From Planctomycetota bacterium (lineage in GTDB: Bacteria; Planctomycetota; Planctomycetia; Pirellulales; Pirellulaceae): DNA of 10,294 nt. The stretch spans positions 1 to 10,294 of the forward strand of contig JAHWKS010000100.1 in NCBI GenBank assembly GCA_019347795.1, given 5' to 3'. The translations under genes were made by a program, and so were the position numbers. This document shows positions 352 through 8,716 of the stretch, one piece after another. The notes below the pieces were generated by a model. It was not told where the DNA came from. It ran no database searches and was given only the letters and a program-made list of their open reading frames with translations. Every line of letters begins with the position of its first letter. The stretch's first letter is position 1.

Positions 352-371
352 CCCCAACGGCTCCGGCTGCG

Positions 372-380
372 TGATACAAT
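372..380 (+). promoter_or_regulatory. Candidate extended -10 promoter (TG-A-TACAAT)
   Basis: The sequence TGATACAAT has the extended -10 form TGnTATAAT with one mismatch and lies 62 bases before the ATG at 443. No convincing TTGACA-like -35 is visible about 17 bases upstream, which extended -10 promoters can tolerate. If used, transcription would begin near 387, giving a leader of roughly 55 bases. It would also put the longer GTG start at 371 upstream of the transcript. Assignment is by pattern only. Confidence 0.35.
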
Positions 381-442
381 GGCATGGCGCCGTCCCGCCT
401 CGCCTCATGCCCCACCAAACGATCGTTCCTCTTAAGCAATCC

Positions 443-3304
443 ATGAAACGCCTCCTGGTTTCCCTAGTTGTTTTCGTCATCGCGTCCACTTCGGCGGCGG
501 CTGAAGCGCCCGACTTCGCAAAAGACATCGCGCCGCTGCTGCGAAAGTACTGTGCGGGATGCCATAACGCCGATGACCCGCAGGCGGAGTTGGCGCTCGA
601 CTCGCACGCCGCGGCGATGAAGGGGGGCGACAGCGGCGCCGTGATCGCGCCCGGCAAGAGCGGCGAGAGCAAGTTGATCCGCGTGTTGACCGGCAAGGAT
701 GAGCCGAGCATGCCGCCCGAGGGTGAAGCCCGGCCGAGCGAGGCGGAGATCGCGCTGTTGGCGGCGTGGATCGACGCCGGCGCCAAGGGTTCTGAGATTG
801 CGCCGACGTTGCCGGAGACGCCGAAGATTGCGCTTTCCGCGCCGGCCCGCCGGCCGATTAACGCCGCCGCGTATTCGCCGGATGGCAAGACAATCGCCCT
901 TGCGCGGTACGGCGCCGTGGAGCTTCTATCGGTGGAAAAGGGGACGCCGATTGCGGCGCTGGAGGGCCTCAGCGGCAACGTCAATGCCGTCGGCTTCTCG
1001 CCGGATGGGAAACTCCTCGCAGCCGCCGCGGGCGAAGCGGGACTCTTTGGCGAAGTGCGAGTCTGGTCCGCCGCCGATCATAAACTGTTGCACACGCTAC
1101 GGGGACATCGCGACAGCATCTACGCCTTGGACATCAGCCCCGACGGCAACATGCTGGCCACGGGCAGCTACGACCATGACGTGAAGCTCTGGCGCCTGGA
1201 AACCGGCACCGAGCTGCGAACGCTGGAGAACCACAACGGCGCCGTGTTTGGTGTGGCGTTTCATCCCCGCGGGCATCTGCTGGCCAGCGCCAGCGCAGAT
1301 CGCACGGTGAAGCTCTGGGACGTGGAATCGGGGAAGCGGCTCGACACGTTCGAGCAATCCACGCAGGAGACATACGCCCTGGCGTTTCATCCCGACGGCA
1401 AGCGGCTGGCGGCCGCCGGGGCCGATAATCGCATTCGCGTCTGGTCGATCAGCGACAGCGGCGCCGAAGGGACCAATCCGATCCTGCTGTCGCGGTTCGG
1501 GCACGAGAAGGCAATCCTCCGGCTGGCGTTCTCGCGCGACGGCCGAACGCTGGTCTCGACGGGCGAAGATGAGCTTGTGAAGGTGTGGGACGGCAGCGAG
1601 ATGGTGCTGCGCGACACGCTGCCGCCGCAGCCGGACTGGAGTTCCGGATTGGCGATCGCTCCGGACGGCGAAACGGTCTTCGTCGGCCGGTTGGACGGCA
1701 CGTGGGACACGTACGCGATCGCCGACTCTGAGCCGCTCACGGAAGGGGCGGCGCCGATGACCAGCGAGACCGTTTCCGGTGACGCGGTAGCGGCCGAGTC
1801 GCCGCCGATGACGCAGGCCGAGGAAATCGAGCCAAACGGCGCGATCGAGCAGGCTGCGCCGCTCTCGCTCCCAGTGAACGTCAAAGGACGGCTTCACATC
1901 GAGAGCGATCCGCTCGCCGCCGACGTGGACCTGTACCGCATCGAGGCTAAGGAAGGGGAGTCCTGGGTGCTGGAGACCCAGGCCGCGCGAAGCGGCTCGC
2001 CGGCCGATACAAAGATCGAAGTGCTCGACGCCGCCGGCCGACCTGTCCCTCGGGTGCTCCTGCGGGCGACGCGGGACTCGTGGATCACCTTCCGCGGCAT
2101 CGACTCCTCCACGCTCGATTGCCGCGTCGTGTATTGGGAGGAGATGCAGCTCAATCAGTATCTCTACATGAACGGCGAGGTCGTGAAGCTCTACCGCGCG
2201 CCGCAAGGCCCAGACTCCGGCTTCCAGTTCTATCCCGGCTCAGGCAAGCGGCACACGTACTTCGACACCAGCGCCCGCGCCCACGCCTTGGATGAGCCGT
2301 GCTACATCGTCACGCCCTATCCGCCGGAGACCGAGCTGCCCAATAACGGCCTGCCCACGTTCACCGTCTACTACGAGAACGACGACGAGCACCGGCAGGC
2401 GTACGGCAAGGACTCTTACCTGACCTTCACCGCCCCGGCTGACGGCGAGTATCTGGTGCGCGTGAGCGACGTGCGCGGCTTCGCCGGCGACAGCTTTTCC
2501 TACGAGCTGACGGTCGGCCGCCCGCGGCCCGATTTCAAGATTACCCTCGGCGGCGCCAATCCGGAGGTTTCCGCCGCGAGCGGGAAACGGTTCACCGTCA
2601 CCGCGGAGCGGATCGACGGCTTCGACGGCGAGATCCGCGTCGATGTCGAGGGACTGCCGCCCGGCTTCCGCGCCACGACGCCGCTGGTGATCGAAGCCGG
2701 CCATCTCGAGGCTCGCGGGGTGATCAACGCCCTGCCCGACGCGCCGGCGCCGACGGAAGCGAACTGGGCCAAGACCAAGATCACCGCCACGGCTATGATC
2801 GGAGGGCGCGAAGTGACGCATGAGGTGAATTCGCTGGGAACGGTAAAGCTGGCGGGCGAGCCGAAGCTCTTCGTGCGTCTCTCGCCGCTGGATGAGGACG
2901 ATCCGGCGAAAGACGTGACGATCAGCCCCGGCGAGGAGCCGGCGGAGATCGTGATTCGCCCCGGGGCCACCGTCACGTGCCGGCTCAGCATCGACCGCAA
3001 CGACTTCGACGACCGCGTGAAGTTCGAGGTGGACAATCTCCCGCACGGCGTGATTGTGGACAACATCGGCTTGAACGGCGTCTTGCTCCCCGAGGGGAAA
3101 AGCGAGCGCACGCTCTACCTGACCGCCGCCGACTGGGTCCCCGCCACCCGCCGTCAATTTTTCGCCATGGCAAAAGCCGCCGGCGACCAGGCTTCCTACC
3201 CCCTGTGGTTACGCGTCCAAGAAGCGGAGAAGGTTCAAGCTCCCCTTTCGCAAAGTCGGACGGAAGGCGAAGATCCGCCGAAGCAAGACGTTCTGAGACG
3301 GTAA
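443..3304 (+). CDS. Secreted c-type cytochrome / WD40 propeller / PPC-domain protein
   Basis: 953 residues if started at ATG 443. I chose this start because MKRLLVSLVVFVIASTSAAA is a clean export signal (cleavage near residues 20-22), whereas the alternative GTG at 371 would place 24 polar residues in front of it. Domains in order: a mono-haem cytochrome c domain (about 25-116) with haem motif CAGCH at 37-41 and likely axial Met at M90 in SMPPEG; seven WD40-type blades (about 137-428), with SPDG/HPDG turns and closing VRVWS, VKLWR, VKLWD, IRVWS and VKVWD strands; an acidic linker; a PPC-like beta domain split in two (about 461-545 and 656-692) around a Tyr-rich insert; and two immunoglobulin-like beta regions (about 698-800 and 840-925). 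It is probably periplasmic or cell-surface. Such cytochrome/WD40 fusions are typical of planctomycetes, but their electron partners and binding targets are not established, so no specific function is claimed. No SD sequence is visible. Confidence 0.9.
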   Translation: MKRLLVSLVVFVIASTSAAAEAPDFAKDIAPLLRKYCAGCHNADDPQAELALDSHAAAMKGGDSGAVIAPGKSGESKLIRVLTGKDEPSMPPEGEARPSEAEIALLAAWIDAGAKGSEIAPTLPETPKIALSAPARRPINAAAYSPDGKTIALARYGAVELLSVEKGTPIAALEGLSGNVNAVGFSPDGKLLAAAAGEAGLFGEVRVWSAADHKLLHTLRGHRDSIYALDISPDGNMLATGSYDHDVKLWRLETGTELRTLENHNGAVFGVAFHPRGHLLASASADRTVKLWDVESGKRLDTFEQSTQETYALAFHPDGKRLAAAGADNRIRVWSISDSGAEGTNPILLSRFGHEKAILRLAFSRDGRTLVSTGEDELVKVWDGSEMVLRDTLPPQPDWSSGLAIAPDGETVFVGRLDGTWDTYAIADSEPLTEGAAPMTSETVSGDAVAAESPPMTQAEEIEPNGAIEQAAPLSLPVNVKGRLHIESDPLAADVDLYRIEAKEGESWVLETQAARSGSPADTKIEVLDAAGRPVPRVLLRATRDSWITFRGIDSSTLDCRVVYWEEMQLNQYLYMNGEVVKLYRAPQGPDSGFQFYPGSGKRHTYFDTSARAHALDEPCYIVTPYPPETELPNNGLPTFTVYYENDDEHRQAYGKDSYLTFTAPADGEYLVRVSDVRGFAGDSFSYELTVGRPRPDFKITLGGANPEVSAASGKRFTVTAERIDGFDGEIRVDVEGLPPGFRATTPLVIEAGHLEARGVINALPDAPAPTEANWAKTKITATAMIGGREVTHEVNSLGTVKLAGEPKLFVRLSPLDEDDPAKDVTISPGEEPAEIVIRPGATVTCRLSIDRNDFDDRVKFEVDNLPHGVIVDNIGLNGVLLPEGKSERTLYLTAADWVPATRRQFFAMAKAAGDQASYPLWLRVQEAEKVQAPLSQSRTEGEDPPKQDVLRR

Positions 3305-4441: not shown

Positions 4442-6310
4442 TTACTTCCCGCGCCTCGCAACCCGCTCCTCCCGTTGCCGCTGGCGCTGGCGGATGTGCT
4501 CCAGGTCGTCCTTGGGCGTGGCGTCGATCAGGCGGCGGGTGTAGGCCTCTTGCGGGTCGGCGTAGATCGCTTCCGAGGGGCCGAACTCGATGATCTTCCC
4601 TTCGTTCATCACCGCCATCATGTCGGCCATGAACTTCACCACGCTCAGGTCGTGGCTGATGAAGATATACGTCAGGTCGCGCTTCCGCTGCAGGTCCTTG
4701 AGCAGGTTCAGCACCTGGGCCTGGACCGAGACATCCAGGGCCGAGACCGACTCGTCGCAGATGATGAAGTCCGGCTCCACCGTCAAGGCCCGGGCGATGC
4801 AGAGCCGCTGCCGCTGGCCGCCGGAGAACTCGTGCGGATAACGGCGCAGGTGCATCGATCGCAGGCCGACTTCCTCCAACAAGGCGGCGGCGCGGTCGCG
4901 GCGGTCGCGGGCGGATTTCCCCACCCCGTGGATAACCATCGGCTCCACCAGCGCCGCCTCGATCGTCATCCGCGGGTTGAGCGAGCCGTAGGGATCCTGA
5001 AAGATGATCTGCATCCGCCGGCGGATGCGGCGCAGCTCGTTGTGGCTGAGCGAGGCGACGTCGGTCGCCTCGAACAGCACCCGCCCGGCGGTGATCGGGA
5101 CGAGGCGCAAGATCGCCCGGCCGGTGGTGGTTTTGCCGCAGCCGGACTCGCCCACCAGCCCCAGCGTCTGGCCCGGGTAGACGCGGAAGCTGATGTCGTC
5201 CACCGCCTTCACGTGATCCACCACCCGTTGCAAAACGCCGCGGCGGATGGGGAAATAGACCTTCAGATTCTGCACGTCCAACAGCGGCCGACGGCCTTCC
5301 TCGACGGTGGTCACGTCGGCGGCGTGCTGCGTCGGGTCGAAGGGATGCCCCATCGCCTTCAACTCCGACTTGGGGTGCAAGAGCCGTCCCCGGCCGTCGG
5401 TCTTGAGAAACTCCAGCCGCTGGGGAGTCATCTTCTTCTCACGGATGACCAGCTCGCCGTCCTTCTCGGCCGTCTCCATGTAGTCGCTCACCGTGGGGAG
5501 CCGCTTGAACGGCGTCTCCAGCCGCGGCCGACAGTTCAAGAGGCCCTTCGTGTACGGGTGGCTGGGGTTCTCGAAGATTTCCAGCACGGGTCCGTACTCG
5601 ACCACCTTGCCGTTGAGCATCACGGCCACGTCGTCGGCGATCTCGGCGATGACGCCCAAGTCGTGCGTGATGAAGAGGATGGCCATCCCGCGCTGGTCGC
5701 GGAGGTCGCGGAGGATGTCGAGAATCTGGGCCTGGATCGTCACGTCCAGGGCGGTGCTCGGCTCGTCGGCGATCAAGAGCCGCGGATTGCAGGAGAGGGC
5801 CATCGCGATCATCACCCGCTGCTTCTGTCCGCCGGACATCTGGTGCGGATAGGCGTCCACCCGCCGCTCGGCGTCGGCGATGCCCACTTCCTTGAACAGC
5901 TCGATCGTGCGGCGGCGGGCCTCCGCCTTGCTCACGTGCTGATGGATGCGGATCGCCTCCATCACCTGCGAGCCGACCGTGAACACCGGGTTGAGCGACG
6001 TCATCGGCTCCTGAAAGATCATGCTGATCTCTTTGCCGCGTAGTTGCCGCATCTCCGGCTCGGGGAGCCGCACCAGGTTCTCGCCGAGGAACGCAATACG
6101 GCCGGTTTCGATCTTCGCCGTGGGCGCCAGAAGCCGCATGATCGAGAGCGACGTGACCGACTTGCCCGAGCCGCTTTCCCCCACCACGCCCAGCGTGCGG
6201 CCCTCGTGGATGTCCAGCGAGATATCGTCCACCGCCTTGATCACGCCTTCTTCGGTGTAGAAGTACGTGCGGAGGTCGTCGATCTCGAGGAGGGGAGAAG
6301 GGTTATTCAT
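4442..6310 (-). CDS. Peptide-type ABC transporter ATPase, two fused nucleotide-binding domains (YejF/GsiA-like)
   Basis: 622 residues that would power import of a peptide-like substrate on the cytoplasmic face. NBD1: Walker A GESGSGKS 44-51, Q-loop Q100, signature MSGGQ 158-162, Walker B LLIADE 178-183 with catalytic E183, H-loop H216. NBD2: Walker A GESGCGKT 387-394, Q438, signature FSGGQ 495-499, Walker B FIICDE 515-520 with E520, H553. Both sites look catalytically intact. The stretch after NBD1 (HPYTKGLL, 251-258) is typical of the oligopeptide/dipeptide subfamily. The long linker (about 265-340) is charged, and the Cys cluster found after the NBD in many OppD/DppD proteins is absent. Start ATG 6310 is chosen because the in-frame ATG at 6367 would translate a palindromic repeat before MNNPSPLLEI. 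Length resembles GsiA, while gene order resembles yejABEF, so no symbol is assigned. It is the last clear transporter gene, 115 bases after the YejE-like permease. Confidence 0.95.
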   Translation of the reverse strand: MNNPSPLLEIDDLRTYFYTEEGVIKAVDDISLDIHEGRTLGVVGESGSGKSVTSLSIMRLLAPTAKIETGRIAFLGENLVRLPEPEMRQLRGKEISMIFQEPMTSLNPVFTVGSQVMEAIRIHQHVSKAEARRRTIELFKEVGIADAERRVDAYPHQMSGGQKQRVMIAMALSCNPRLLIADEPSTALDVTIQAQILDILRDLRDQRGMAILFITHDLGVIAEIADDVAVMLNGKVVEYGPVLEIFENPSHPYTKGLLNCRPRLETPFKRLPTVSDYMETAEKDGELVIREKKMTPQRLEFLKTDGRGRLLHPKSELKAMGHPFDPTQHAADVTTVEEGRRPLLDVQNLKVYFPIRRGVLQRVVDHVKAVDDISFRVYPGQTLGLVGESGCGKTTTGRAILRLVPITAGRVLFEATDVASLSHNELRRIRRRMQIIFQDPYGSLNPRMTIEAALVEPMVIHGVGKSARDRRDRAAALLEEVGLRSMHLRRYPHEFSGGQRQRLCIARALTVEPDFIICDESVSALDVSVQAQVLNLLKDLQRKRDLTYIFISHDLSVVKFMADMMAVMNEGKIIEFGPSEAIYADPQEAYTRRLIDATPKDDLEHIRQRQRQREERVARRGK

Positions 6311-6318
6311 GGTTCGCT

Positions 6319-6426
6319 CATCGTTTAACCGCGTGCCCGGCGGGCCGCGCGGCGGTGGAGTTGGCAAGCGGCGGATGATTTCAACGTCACGCCCTCGCGC
6401 GGCCCGCTGGGCCGCGGTTAAACGAT
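6319..6426. repeat. Palindromic intergenic element, copy 1 (REP-doublet-like)
   Basis: Left arm 6320-6351 and right arm 6396-6426 are inverted copies, differing by one extra base and one substitution, around a 44-base centre (6352-6395). Each arm has a head (ATCGTTTAAC) followed by a short palindrome of the form CGCG(T)GCCC-NNC-GGGCCGCG, so arms can fold singly or pair with each other. The left arm matches the left arm of the copy at 7646-7678 at 31 of 33 positions. The right arm touches the TGA of the YejE-like permease gene. The left arm ends 8 bases before the ATPase start. The element fills nearly all of the 115-base gap. Confidence 0.85.
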
Positions 6427-7637
6427 CAATGGCCGGCTTGCCTTAATCGGGGGTCGGTGGCTTCTTGGAGGCCTTCGCCGATGAGGTTGTACGCCAGCAC
6501 GGTGAGGAAGATCGCCATGCCGGGGAAGAGGATCAGCCACCACATCTCGCGGATCGCGTCGCGGCCCTTGCTCAAAAGGTCCCCCCAGCTCGGCGCCGTT
6601 GGGTCGCCGAACCCGAGGAAACTGAGCGCGCTCTCGGTGAGGATGGCCGAGGCGATGCCGAACGCGATCGGCACCAGGATCGGCGCCAGCGCATTCCGTA
6701 GGATGTGGCGGAACATCAGGCGGCCGTGCCCGGCCCCGAGCGCCTTGGCGGCGGCGACGTACTCCATCTGCTTGAGCTTGAGGAACTCGCCGCGCGTGAG
6801 GCGGGCGATGCCGGTCCAGCCGGTCACGCCCAGCACCGCCATGATGTGCCAGATCGAAGGCCGCTCCACGATCGCCAATAGGGCCAGGATGAGCACGAGC
6901 GAAGGGATGCACATCACCACTTCGATCAGCCGGCTCAGCACGATGTCGATCGCTCCGCCGAAATAGCCGGCCGCCGCCCCCATGCTGATGCCGATGGTGG
7001 CCGCGATGCCCATCGACACGAAGCCGACCAGCATCGCGGTCTGCGCGCCGTGCACCATCTGCGCGAACACATCCACTCCGCGGTCGGTCGTGCCGAAGAG
7101 GTTGAACGGCGGCGGACCGGCGAGGTATTCCTCGCTGAACTCCTCCTGAACGCGGTTCGTGTCAAATAGGGCATCCCAACCCTTGAGCCACAAGTAATAG
7201 AGATACGGTTTCCCGTTGTGGCCGGTGGGATTGGGCGGGATGACGCCCGGCCAGTCGTCCTCGTAAATGCGGCGATCGGGGTCCTGGTAGACCAGCGGCC
7301 AAATGGCCCAACTCTCGGGGTCGTTCTCCTTGAGGTTTTTGGGATACCGGCCGCGGAACTTGTCTTCCGTGCGGAAGATGGCGTTCTCCCAGCGGCGGTT
7401 GTAGTAGGCCATCGCGGGAAAGTAGAGCCGGCCCTTGTAGCGCGTGACGATCGGCTTGGTGCCGGCGATGGCGGGCGCGAACAGCGCCACCATTCCCAGC
7501 AGGACCACGAAGATGAGCGCCGTCATCCCGAGCTTCCGCCGGCGAAACCGCTGCCACGCCTCCACCCAGAACCCGCGCGAAGGCATCGCCTCGACCGGCG
7601 GCGCGGAAGTCGGTTGTTCGACGGGAATCGTGGACAT
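6426..7637 (-). CDS. yejE: ABC transporter permease, YejE/DppC type, with long extracytoplasmic insert
   Basis: 403 residues; one of two membrane subunits of the peptide-type importer. A cytoplasmic N-terminus (1-36) is followed by TM1 (about 37-58, GMTALIFVVLLGMVALFAPA). Then comes an extracytoplasmic segment of about 140 residues (59-195), rich in Trp, Tyr and Pro, before the conserved FGTTDRGVDVFAQMVHG entry. The remaining TM helices span about 200-225, 233-257, 262-278, 318-342 and 367-388. The EAA coupling loop is 292-315 (EYVAAAKALGAGHGRL and onward), the site that docks to the ATPase. The motif KPIVTRYKGRLYFP (61-74) resembles the start of the insert in E. coli YejE as I remember it, which is why I use that symbol; the insert here is longer. 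Start ATG 7637 is chosen over an upstream in-frame ATG at 7688 that lies inside the repeat element. No SD sequence is visible. Stop TGA overlaps the next repeat copy by one base. Confidence 0.93.
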   Translation of the reverse strand: MSTIPVEQPTSAPPVEAMPSRGFWVEAWQRFRRRKLGMTALIFVVLLGMVALFAPAIAGTKPIVTRYKGRLYFPAMAYYNRRWENAIFRTEDKFRGRYPKNLKENDPESWAIWPLVYQDPDRRIYEDDWPGVIPPNPTGHNGKPYLYYLWLKGWDALFDTNRVQEEFSEEYLAGPPPFNLFGTTDRGVDVFAQMVHGAQTAMLVGFVSMGIAATIGISMGAAAGYFGGAIDIVLSRLIEVVMCIPSLVLILALLAIVERPSIWHIMAVLGVTGWTGIARLTRGEFLKLKQMEYVAAAKALGAGHGRLMFRHILRNALAPILVPIAFGIASAILTESALSFLGFGDPTAPSWGDLLSKGRDAIREMWWLILFPGMAIFLTVLAYNLIGEGLQEATDPRLRQAGH

Positions 7638-7645
7638 GCAATGTA

Positions 7646-7734
7646 CATCGTTTAACCGCGTGCCCAACGGGCCGCGCGATGGCGCCAAGTTGAGCCTTGA
7701 CCCAAGCGCGGCCCGTTGGGCACGCGGTTAAACG
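7646..7734. repeat. Palindromic intergenic element, copy 2 (REP-doublet-like, perfect arms)
   Basis: Left arm 7649-7677 and right arm 7706-7734 are perfect 29-base reverse complements around a 28-base centre (7678-7705). The shared left-arm homology with copy 1 begins at 7646. Each arm has the head CGTTTAAC and an inner palindrome CGCGTGCCC-AAC-GGGCCGCG with a bulged T. The right arm lies one base after the TAA of the upstream permease gene (7736-7738), and the left arm ends 8-11 bases before the start of the next. In mRNA the 29-bp stem would be extremely stable. The central bases are not clearly related to those of copy 1. Confidence 0.9.
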
Positions 7735-7735
7735 C

Positions 7736-8716
7736 TTAGGAGTACGTAACCCTGGGATCGACGAAGGCGTACAAAATGTCGGCCAGCAACTGGCCCAGCA
7801 GCGTGAGGACGGAGAACATCAGCGTCAGGCCCATGATCGTGGGATAGTCGCGCTCGCGGAGCGACTCGAAGAACAGGCTTCCCATGCCGGGCCAGGAGAA
7901 GATCCGCTCCAGAATCACCGCGCCGCTCAACAGCGCCGGCAGCGTCAGGCCGATCAGCGTGACCAGCGGGATCAGCGTGTTGCGGAAAGCGTGATGCACG
8001 AGGACCCGGACCGGCCCCACCCCCTTGGCCCTGGCCGTGCGGATGTAGTCCTGGCGGATCACCTCCTCCATGTTCGACTTGATGAACCGCGTCTCGTAGG
8101 CCAGGCTGGCGTAGGTGAAGCAGATCATCGGCATTAGGGCATGGAGCAACAGGTCCCAGGCCTTGCCGAAGACCGACATTTGGGCGTAGTCGGGGCTGGT
8201 AATGTCCATCAGCGGCAGCCACTCCAGCTTCACCGCAAACAGGAGCTGCAAGTACAGCGCGGCGACGAAGCTGGGCAAGGCATACAGCATGTACAGGAGC
8301 GTGCTCACCGTGCGCTCCGGGATCGTGCCGCTTTTGGCCGTGGCCCAGAGTCCCATCGGAATCGACAGCAGGTAGGCGAGGATCAGCGAAGGGACCGTCA
8401 ACAACAGCGTGGCGCGGATCCGCTCGCCGATGAGCCGCGTCACCGGCTGCTTGCGGGCGATCGAAGTCCCCAGGTCGCCGCGCGCGAGATTCCCCAGCCA
8501 GACGAAGTACGCCTGATACCACGGCTTATCCAGGCCGTAAATGCGCTTCATCCGCTCGTAATCGGCCTGACTGACGCTCTTGCTGGGGTCCAGTTCCGCC
8601 AGCGCCGTGGTGAGCGGCGTCCCCGGCATGCTGCGGATCAGCCCGTAGACGAAGAACGTGATGAGCGTCAACGTCACGGCGCCGATCAAGAGTCGTCGGA
8701 CGAGGTAGCTGAACAT
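7736..8716 (-). CDS. ABC transporter permease, DppB/YejB type
   Basis: 326 residues, ATG 8716 to TAA 7736, the usual length for this subunit. It begins with the family-typical MFSYLVRRLLIGAVTLTLIT, a basic start running into TM1 (about 9-28). RSMPGTP (28-34) follows, then an extracytoplasmic region with YGLDKPWYQAYFVWLGNL (60-77) and DLGTS, a standard OppB/DppB signature. Further TM helices lie near 102-124, 137-162, 188-206, 247-270 and 296-318. The EAA coupling loop is at 223-246 (DYIRTARAKGVGPVRVLVHH and on). The C-terminus VDPRVTYS is characteristic. It pairs with the YejE-like permease to form the channel. The bases before the ATG are CTTCCTCC, with no SD. The gap to the binding-protein gene is 94 bases and holds two hairpins. 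YejB and DppB are hard to tell apart here, so the symbol is left empty. Confidence 0.94.
   Translation of the reverse strand: MFSYLVRRLLIGAVTLTLITFFVYGLIRSMPGTPLTTALAELDPSKSVSQADYERMKRIYGLDKPWYQAYFVWLGNLARGDLGTSIARKQPVTRLIGERIRATLLLTVPSLILAYLLSIPMGLWATAKSGTIPERTVSTLLYMLYALPSFVAALYLQLLFAVKLEWLPLMDITSPDYAQMSVFGKAWDLLLHALMPMICFTYASLAYETRFIKSNMEEVIRQDYIRTARAKGVGPVRVLVHHAFRNTLIPLVTLIGLTLPALLSGAVILERIFSWPGMGSLFFESLRERDYPTIMGLTLMFSVLTLLGQLLADILYAFVDPRVTYS

What the first reader, a model, noticed from the sequence alone, without database searches (positions are those of the whole stretch)
6319..7734. Two copies of a paired palindromic element fill consecutive gaps of one operon
The gaps before the ATPase and YejE-like genes are almost fully occupied by the same inverted-repeat element. 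Left arms match at 31 of 33 positions. In copy 2 the arms are perfect over 29 bases. Both copies start at or within one base of the upstream stop codon and end about ten bases before the next start. This precise placement suggests either insertion targeted to gene ends or selection for function, and resembles REP doublets (BIME/REPIN) mobilised by RAYT transposases. I cannot tell whether the family is already described in planctomycetes.
Basis: partly seen in the sequence, partly recalled or inferred. Interest (0 to 1): 0.72.

Follow-up and report, generated by a model that had tools for sequence, protein, structure and literature searches.

The report
GTTTAAC-tagged REPIN elements in a planctomycete operon
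Two gaps in a peptide-transporter operon hold copies of a small, probably mobile DNA hairpin that is scattered through this bacterium's genome, and in two related planctomycetes the same hairpin surrounds the gene of the transposase-like enzyme that probably moves it.

Summary
The two gaps carry tag-outward doublets of a REP: a 7-base tag GTTTAAC (usually preceded by TC) followed directly by an 8-bp hairpin whose stem covaries. The family is dispersed: 44 exact heads in the draft genome (reversed-pattern control 2); with one mismatch allowed, 19 doublets, all in one orientation. Tag plus hairpin occurs in 19 of 241 genomes of the family (Pirellulaceae), with 259 copies in Rubripirellula lacrimiformis.

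No RAYT gene flanked by these arms was found in the window's own 72%-complete genome. In two relatives (G200; G202 = R. lacrimiformis) a divergent RAYT-like HUH-Y1 gene sits inside an array of exactly these REPs. Of 80 catalogue loci of this RAYT clade, 65 have GTTTAAC or GTTTAGC tags beside the gene, and the tag type largely follows the RAYT tree. This is a REPIN/RAYT system whose tag is not the canonical GTAG or CGTC, with a RAYT clade that scores below NCBI's RAYT cut-off.

Placement just after stop codons is real in this genome (11 of 17 tandem cases within 8 nt, 4.25 expected), but the spacing varies, which fits tolerated positions better than targeting.

New variant of a known kind; mobility itself is inferred.

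The parts
6321..6425 (.). REPIN copy 1 (TC + tag ... tag + GA), between ATPase gene start and permease gene stop
6323..6351 (+). left REP of copy 1: tag GTTTAAC 6323-6329, then hairpin with one T bulge
   Evidence: pairing model (folded alone it prefers a shifted stem)
6396..6423 (-). right REP of copy 1: tag 6417-6423, hairpin without bulge
7648..7735 (.). REPIN copy 2 (TC + tag ... tag + GC), between permease gene start and upstream permease gene stop
7650..7678 (+). left REP of copy 2: tag 7650-7656, hairpin 7657-7676 with T bulge
   Evidence: single-arm fold
7705..7733 (-). right REP of copy 2: tag 7727-7733; complementary to the left arm
4442..6310 (-). two-domain ABC ATPase gene (oligopeptide type), downstream of copy 1
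   Evidence: PF00005 two stretches, PF08352
6426..7637 (-). OppC/YejE-like permease gene between the two copies
   Evidence: PF00528, PF12911; start by eye
7736..8716 (-). OppB-like permease gene upstream of copy 2
   Evidence: PF00528, PF19300

Best explanation
Each gap holds a REPIN: two REP hairpins in inverted, tag-outward orientation. Each REP is a 7-nt tag GTTTAAC, normally preceded by the dinucleotide TC, directly at the foot of an 8-bp stem with a 3-nt loop. SHOWN: dispersed family, doublet orientation, covarying stem, constant TC beside the tag, a RAYT-type HUH-Y1 gene inside arrays of the same REP in two relatives, and a tag type that largely follows the RAYT clade. INFERRED: the RAYT recognises tag plus hairpin on single-stranded DNA (exposed for instance at the replication fork), cuts at the TC beside the tag and moves or copies the doublet to a new place, as worked out in part for TnpA(REP) of E. 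coli and Stenotrophomonas. The copies in this genome are probably left over from past activity: linkers have diverged and no cognate RAYT was found. Those that remain sit where they do least harm, often just behind stop codons in operons; an added effect on mRNA (protection of the upstream message, damping of the downstream gene) is possible and untested.
Against: No arm-flanked RAYT in the window's genome; its two genes of the clade (one with stops) carry other palindromes. Of nine genomes with 10 or more tag-plus-hairpin copies only G200 and G202 have a detected cognate gene (E <= 1e-15, at most 12 candidates scored per genome). No clean empty site: the same gaps in G001 hold 86 and 49 unrelated bases, and the G200 site is broken up in G199. 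RAYT scores are below NCBI's curated cut-off (42-51 bits of 80 for four clade members). Folded alone, the left arm of copy 1 takes a shifted stem with z -0.7. Tag-clade agreement can also come from common descent of linked repeats. G016 has 18 heads against a control of 3 but none with this hairpin, not followed up. No movement was observed.
Confidence: 0.9

Rival explanations
1. MITE of an ordinary DDE insertion sequence: the arms are terminal inverted repeats moved by an IS transposase with target-site duplication.
For: Tag-outward inverted ends with unrelated linkers look MITE-like.
Against: Each arm is itself a hairpin with covarying stem; solo arms and long arrays occur; no shared duplication seen by eye in the printed flanks; the gene that carries the arms in G200 and G202 encodes an HUH-Y1 protein.
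Confidence: 0.04
2. The hairpins are kept for function in the operon (transcription attenuator, terminator or mRNA stabiliser), and mobility is secondary.
For: Both lie in operon gaps just behind stop codons; 11 of 17 tandem-context copies are within 8 nt of the stop, expected 4.25, P 6e-5 under uniform placement in the gap.
Against: No terminator-like hit falls in the elements; G001, same genus, 83% identical permease, has no element in either gap and no exact tag-plus-hairpin match anywhere; linkers are not conserved between copies.
Confidence: 0.15
3. Insertion truly targeted to stop codons, for example by base pairing of the tag with a motif at gene ends.
For: Stop proximity in this genome; guide-target pairing is established for IS608 and proposed for REPs (PMC8266576, passages).
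Against: Offsets vary (-1, 2, 2, 2, 2, 3, 3, 4, 5, 5, 7 in the 11 cases); in G007 only 1 of 7 tandem cases is within 8 nt (expected 0.28, P 0.25) and 3 of 7 within 40 nt (P 0.11); in G000 only the two bases next to the tag are constant.
Confidence: 0.1

Closest known systems
REPIN/RAYT systems (REPtrons) of Pseudomonas, Escherichia, Stenotrophomonas
   Same: Inverted REP doublets, dispersed, mostly extragenic, arrays, 5' tag at the hairpin foot, RAYT gene flanked by the same REPs, HUH-Y1 fold
   Different: Tag is GTTTAAC (7 nt), not GT[AG]G; RAYT about 204 aa, below the NCBIfam cut-off; cleavage never tested
TIRYT/TIRtrons (PMC3733652)
   Same: Tyrosine transposases flanked by non-GTAG repeats that form families; that paper notes many transposase genes and flanking repeats in R. 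baltica, and an R. baltica record (L289) carries a GTTTAAC-type member of this clade
   Different: Its main text has no GTTTA or TTTAAC string; figures and supplements not seen, so whether figure 9 includes such a case could not be checked
TnpA-Y1 class 3 of Planctomycetes, Acidobacteria and Proteobacteria (PMC6006769)
   Same: Planctomycete Y1 proteins with atypical tagged hairpins
   Different: Class 3 has Y----Q and a CnGA foot (passages); this clade has Y...NP and GTTTA[AG]C
IS200/IS605 transposons (ISDra2, IS608)
   Same: Same catalytic fold
   Different: The gene is found once in 29 of the 32 matching family genomes, and its flanking hairpins are dispersed repeats of their own

Membership tests
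REPIN | two REPs in inverted orientation forming one long hairpin | tested here: met
   19 of 19 adjacent pairs in G000 are tag-outward; folds of the two window copies z -5.5 to -11.6
REPIN | many dispersed copies, mainly extragenic | tested here: met
   44 heads; 2 of 25 elements inside called genes
REPIN | association with a RAYT flanked by the same REPs | tested here: met
   met in G200 and G202; not found in the own draft genome
REPIN | evidence of mobility (new insertions or excision intermediates) | tested here: inconclusive
   patchy presence; no clean empty site
GTAG or CGTC REP superfamilies | tag GT[AG]G or CGTC at the hairpin foot | tested here: not met
   tag is GTTTAAC
RAYT / TnpA(REP) | HUH motif, catalytic Y followed by NP | tested here: met
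   H102, H104, Y172, N176, P177 invariant in 20 of 20 aligned
RAYT / TnpA(REP) | curated NCBIfam NF047646 cut-off (80 bits) | tested here: not met
   42 to 56 bits in 5 of 5 proteins, best hit nonetheless
RAYT / TnpA(REP) | Y1 fold like 4er8 | tested here: met
RAYT / TnpA(REP) | specific cleavage of single-stranded REP | not testable with these tools
   needs protein
DDE-type MITE | target-site duplication | tested here: inconclusive
   none seen by eye in printed flanks; no empty site available
intrinsic terminator | hairpin followed by T-run | tested here: not met
   neither of the 2 hits in 6200-7850 lies in the elements

The most novel reading that the evidence does not exclude
A phylum-wide class of REPtrons in Planctomycetota uses a heptanucleotide guide (GTTTAAC, GTTTAGC and perhaps rarer relatives such as GTTTCGC or GTTTGAC) instead of GTAG, served by its own clade of RAYTs in which guide type and enzyme have diversified together: a natural series of enzyme/guide pairs from which the recognition code can be read.
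Probability: 0.6. Interest if true: 0.65.

Novelty: new variant of a known kind. Interest (0 to 1): 0.55.

Why it matters
The REP/RAYT biochemistry that I saw (PMC8266576, passages) rests on GTAG-tagged systems of Proteobacteria. Here a different tag, of which one base (A or G at position 6) largely separates two halves of the RAYT tree, gives an outside test of the idea that the tag acts as a guide for the enzyme. G007 and G200 also show the same chromosomal site with and without the RAYT, so loss (or gain) of the enzyme and persistence of its REPs can be studied in close relatives. The repeats also explain a class of hairpins in planctomycete intergenic regions that could be mistaken for terminators or RNAs.

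Tried and rejected
Cognate transposase among ordinary Y1 genes: G000 has 9 PF01797 matches over the cut-off search; 8 were listed (6 contigs) and looked at, the ninth was not listed. G007 has 5, all looked at. None of these 11 stretches (4.2-9 kb each) holds the head even with one mismatch, and several genes have other palindromes beside them, so they were rejected as cognate.

Empty-site tests: G001 and G199 gave no clean empty site. Rfam on the window: nothing. Terminator scan: nothing in the elements. Targeting at a fixed distance from the stop codon: rejected for variable offsets.

That the GTTTAAC tag is not in print rests on library searches (open-access papers only) and on string searches in the main texts of PMC3733652, PMC8266576, PMC6006769, PMC3116915 and PMC2817692: no GTTTA string in any. 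One search (GTTTAAC with palindrom) held 69 papers, of which I saw the 15 listed, mostly about CRISPR. What I saw of papers: PMC3733652 section 16 whole and passages; PMC6006769, PMC8266576 and PMC2817692 passages; PMC3116915 outline and abstract. Figures and supplements were not available. Bertels et al. 2017 (recalled) did not turn up in one search.

Dropped rows and weak points. Placement: 25 G000 elements passed my hairpin filter (the solo arm on L111 did not); the stop-distance test used 17 of 18 tandem elements (one, stop distance 8, was dropped because the next called gene overlapped it); 2 divergent, 1 convergent, 2 inside genes and 2 at contig ends were not in it. L113, L112, L116 and a few others entered with one arm only, so their start distances are too long. 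Gene calls come from my own simple Markov caller. The G007 sample is 24 elements of 259 heads, taken from the first places listed. Three of the 44 exact heads (C518, C549, C866) are not followed by the hairpin (by eye). The GTTTAGC label was chosen after seeing the k-mer counts of the same loci, so it is not a prediction.

Full report
OBSERVATION. The two repeats are present as described. They lie in an oligopeptide-transporter operon on the minus strand: SBP_bac_5 protein, OppB-like permease, [copy 2], OppC/YejE-like permease, [copy 1], double ABC ATPase.

ANATOMY. Each arm starts with GTTTAAC, followed at once by CGCG-(T)-RCCC-ANC-GGGY-CGCG. Folded alone as DNA, the left arm of copy 2 leaves exactly the seven tag bases unpaired; copy 1's left arm takes a shifted stem with a weak z of -0.7. 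The stem varies in a compensated way: A-T, G-C, T-A and C-G at one pair in G000, and swapped GGGC/GCCC inner stems in the relatives; 38 of 39 double changes still pair in bulge-type arms and 9 of 11 in bulge-free arms. Only arms with at least 6 of 8 pairs were admitted, which flatters these numbers. In six bulge-free arms from other genomes one pair position reads G-A, so my alignment of that small class is imperfect. The two bases before the tag are TC in most arms (29/37, 72/89, 46/46), a candidate for the cleavage dinucleotide that is CT or CA in studied REPtrons (PMC8266576, passages). Further out the G000 flanks vary; in the array-rich relatives some outer positions are biased too.

DISPERSAL. 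The own genome (5.92 Mb, 976 contigs, 72% complete) has 44 exact heads against 2 for the control. With one mismatch allowed, 19 doublets appear, 73-117 nt long, all tag-outward. Linkers show no convincing similarity to each other except one pair scoring 14 against a maximum of 12 in 20 shuffles, so there is little sign of recent copying here. G007, G200 and G202 hold arrays of nearly regular units; adjacent heads there are +- 31, -+ 17, ++ 1, -- 7 in G007, 46, 45, 1, 7 in G202 and 18, 16, 0, 0 in G200. In the family search, tag plus hairpin was found in 19 of 241 genomes; nine have 10 or more copies: G202 259, G200 140, G007 115, G000 33, G062 26, G158 18, G199 18, G177 17, G225 16 (forward plus reverse). 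G001, the only other genome of the window's genus there, has none. In the scan of 60 genomes with the head alone most others were near or below the control count; G016 stands out with 18 against 3 but has no match to tag plus hairpin. G202 is Rubripirellula lacrimiformis: identical protein K227x_39830 on a record of the same length, 8,542,491 bases.

RAYT. The Y1 transposases over the Pfam cut-off that I looked at in G000 (8 of 9) and G007 (5 of 5) have no such arms nearby. Weak PF01797 hits in G200 and G202 proved to be related genes (72% identical) enclosed by REPs of exactly this family. A two-sequence profile found relatives in 32 of 241 family genomes. Of 22 loci whose flanks I printed, 19 have GTTTAAC-type palindromes beside the gene by eye, often with another stem (for example GTTTAACGGCAAGCCGCAGGCGAC); the exceptions are both G000 genes (one with stops) and G230, which carry other palindromes. 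So most of these RAYTs serve other REP types, and only G200 and G202 have the window's type. A catalogue scan with 20 aligned proteins kept the best 80 of 401 relatives, 79 of them planctomycetes by title and one a Vicinamibacteraceae MAG. Within 500 nt, 38 have mostly GTTTAAC, 27 mostly GTTTAGC, and 15 neither, though most of those 15 show other palindromes by eye. Sixty have a tag on both sides (34 and 26). Twelve of the 80, all GTTTAAC, are contigs already seen (equal lengths); the GTTTAGC label was chosen after seeing k-mer counts. Beyond 1.5 kb the rate is 43 times lower for GTTTAAC and 14 times lower for GTTTAGC. The protein tree has a split supported 97/98 that puts all 38 GTTTAAC loci, 2 GTTTAGC and 3 others on one side and 25 GTTTAGC and 12 others on the other. 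Tag and enzyme therefore go together, which recognition of the tag by the enzyme predicts; common descent of linked repeats predicts it as well. The protein has invariant HxH, Y and NP, matches NCBI's RAYT family below its cut-off, is called RayT by one source for many relatives, and the AlphaFold model of one member (pLDDT 80, residues 17-46 unreliable) matches IS608, ISDra2 and 4er8.

LOSS OR GAIN OF THE ENZYME. The G200 RAYT site has an orthologue in complete genome G007: flanks 96-97% identical over 3.6 and 4.3 kb, but only one REPIN between the same two genes. Either the RAYT entered at a REPIN in G200 or it was lost from G007, for example by recombination between flanking REPs. With 259 heads but no RAYT match in G007, loss is the simpler reading. 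In G199 the two flanks lie about 246 kb apart without any such REP.

PLACEMENT. In G000, 18 of 25 elements lie between genes in tandem, 1 between converging, 2 between diverging, 2 inside called genes, 2 at contig ends; background gaps are 50, 9 and 4 of 63, so no context is clearly favoured there. Of 17 usable tandem cases 16 are nearer the stop than the start, and 11 are within 8 nt of the stop (expected 4.25 for uniform placement; P 6e-5). In the G007 sample, 10 of 24 are between converging genes (13 of 99 background gaps) and 2 between diverging genes (24 of 99), while the tandem test is not significant (1 of 7, P 0.25). Elements thus tend to avoid gene starts. Since the distance to the stop is not fixed, I read this as purifying selection on insertions, with weak targeting not excluded.

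MECHANISM. Shown: structure, dispersal, RAYT linkage in relatives, tag-clade agreement. Inferred: recognition of tag and hairpin on single strands, cutting at TC, movement of the doublet, decline after loss of the RAYT. Any effect on expression of the transporter is untested.

NOVELTY. The library has 18 papers with both REPIN and RAYT, about half of them unrelated by title. PMC3733652 reports tagged REP families in planctomycetes and many transposase genes with flanking repeats in R. baltica, and an R. baltica record here (L289) carries a GTTTAAC-type gene of this clade, so REP/RAYT systems in this group are not new as such and members may have been seen. I found no GTTTA string in five main texts, figures and supplements unseen. 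Hence: new variant of a known kind.

Noticed in passing
L136, L139, L140, L142-L146 (G000 and G007): Other Y1 transposases, most with a Y...Q motif by eye, have their own, different palindromes beside them, for example repeats of GCCTGGGACGCAAGTCCCAGG around the L142 gene: several REP-like systems seem to coexist per genome.
   Followed up: partly
L137, L138 (G000 C25, C86): Two open frames of 348 and 309 codons give two Y1_Tnp matches each, a possible tandem-domain Y1 family.
   Followed up: no
L115:3969-4041 and L134:4012-4022: REPs of this family lie inside open frames: a secretin-like gene, and a frame with a GDSL-lipase and a DUF7133 part, with the REP between the two parts. Tolerated in-frame insertions or gene-call errors.
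   Followed up: partly
L149:9102-10659 (G007): A stretch of about 1.5 kb with at least seven further copies at 96-98% identity in G007 ends next to a REPIN; probably an insertion sequence.
   Followed up: no
L418, L419 (G199): The two flanks of the G200 RAYT site are about 246 kb apart in G199, so a REPIN site coincides with a rearrangement breakpoint.
   Followed up: partly
L333: A record titled Vicinamibacteraceae (Acidobacteriota) MAG, isolate PLA1, carries a GTTTAGC-type RAYT close to that of an uncultured planctomycete, isolate PLA5 (L343): transfer or binning error.
   Followed up: no
G016: 18 heads GTTTAACCGCG against 3 for the control, some about 200 nt apart, but no match to tag plus this hairpin: perhaps a sister REP type.
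   Followed up: no
window 371-3304: WD40 protein with a planctomycete cytochrome c domain (PSCyt1) beside the operon.
   Followed up: no
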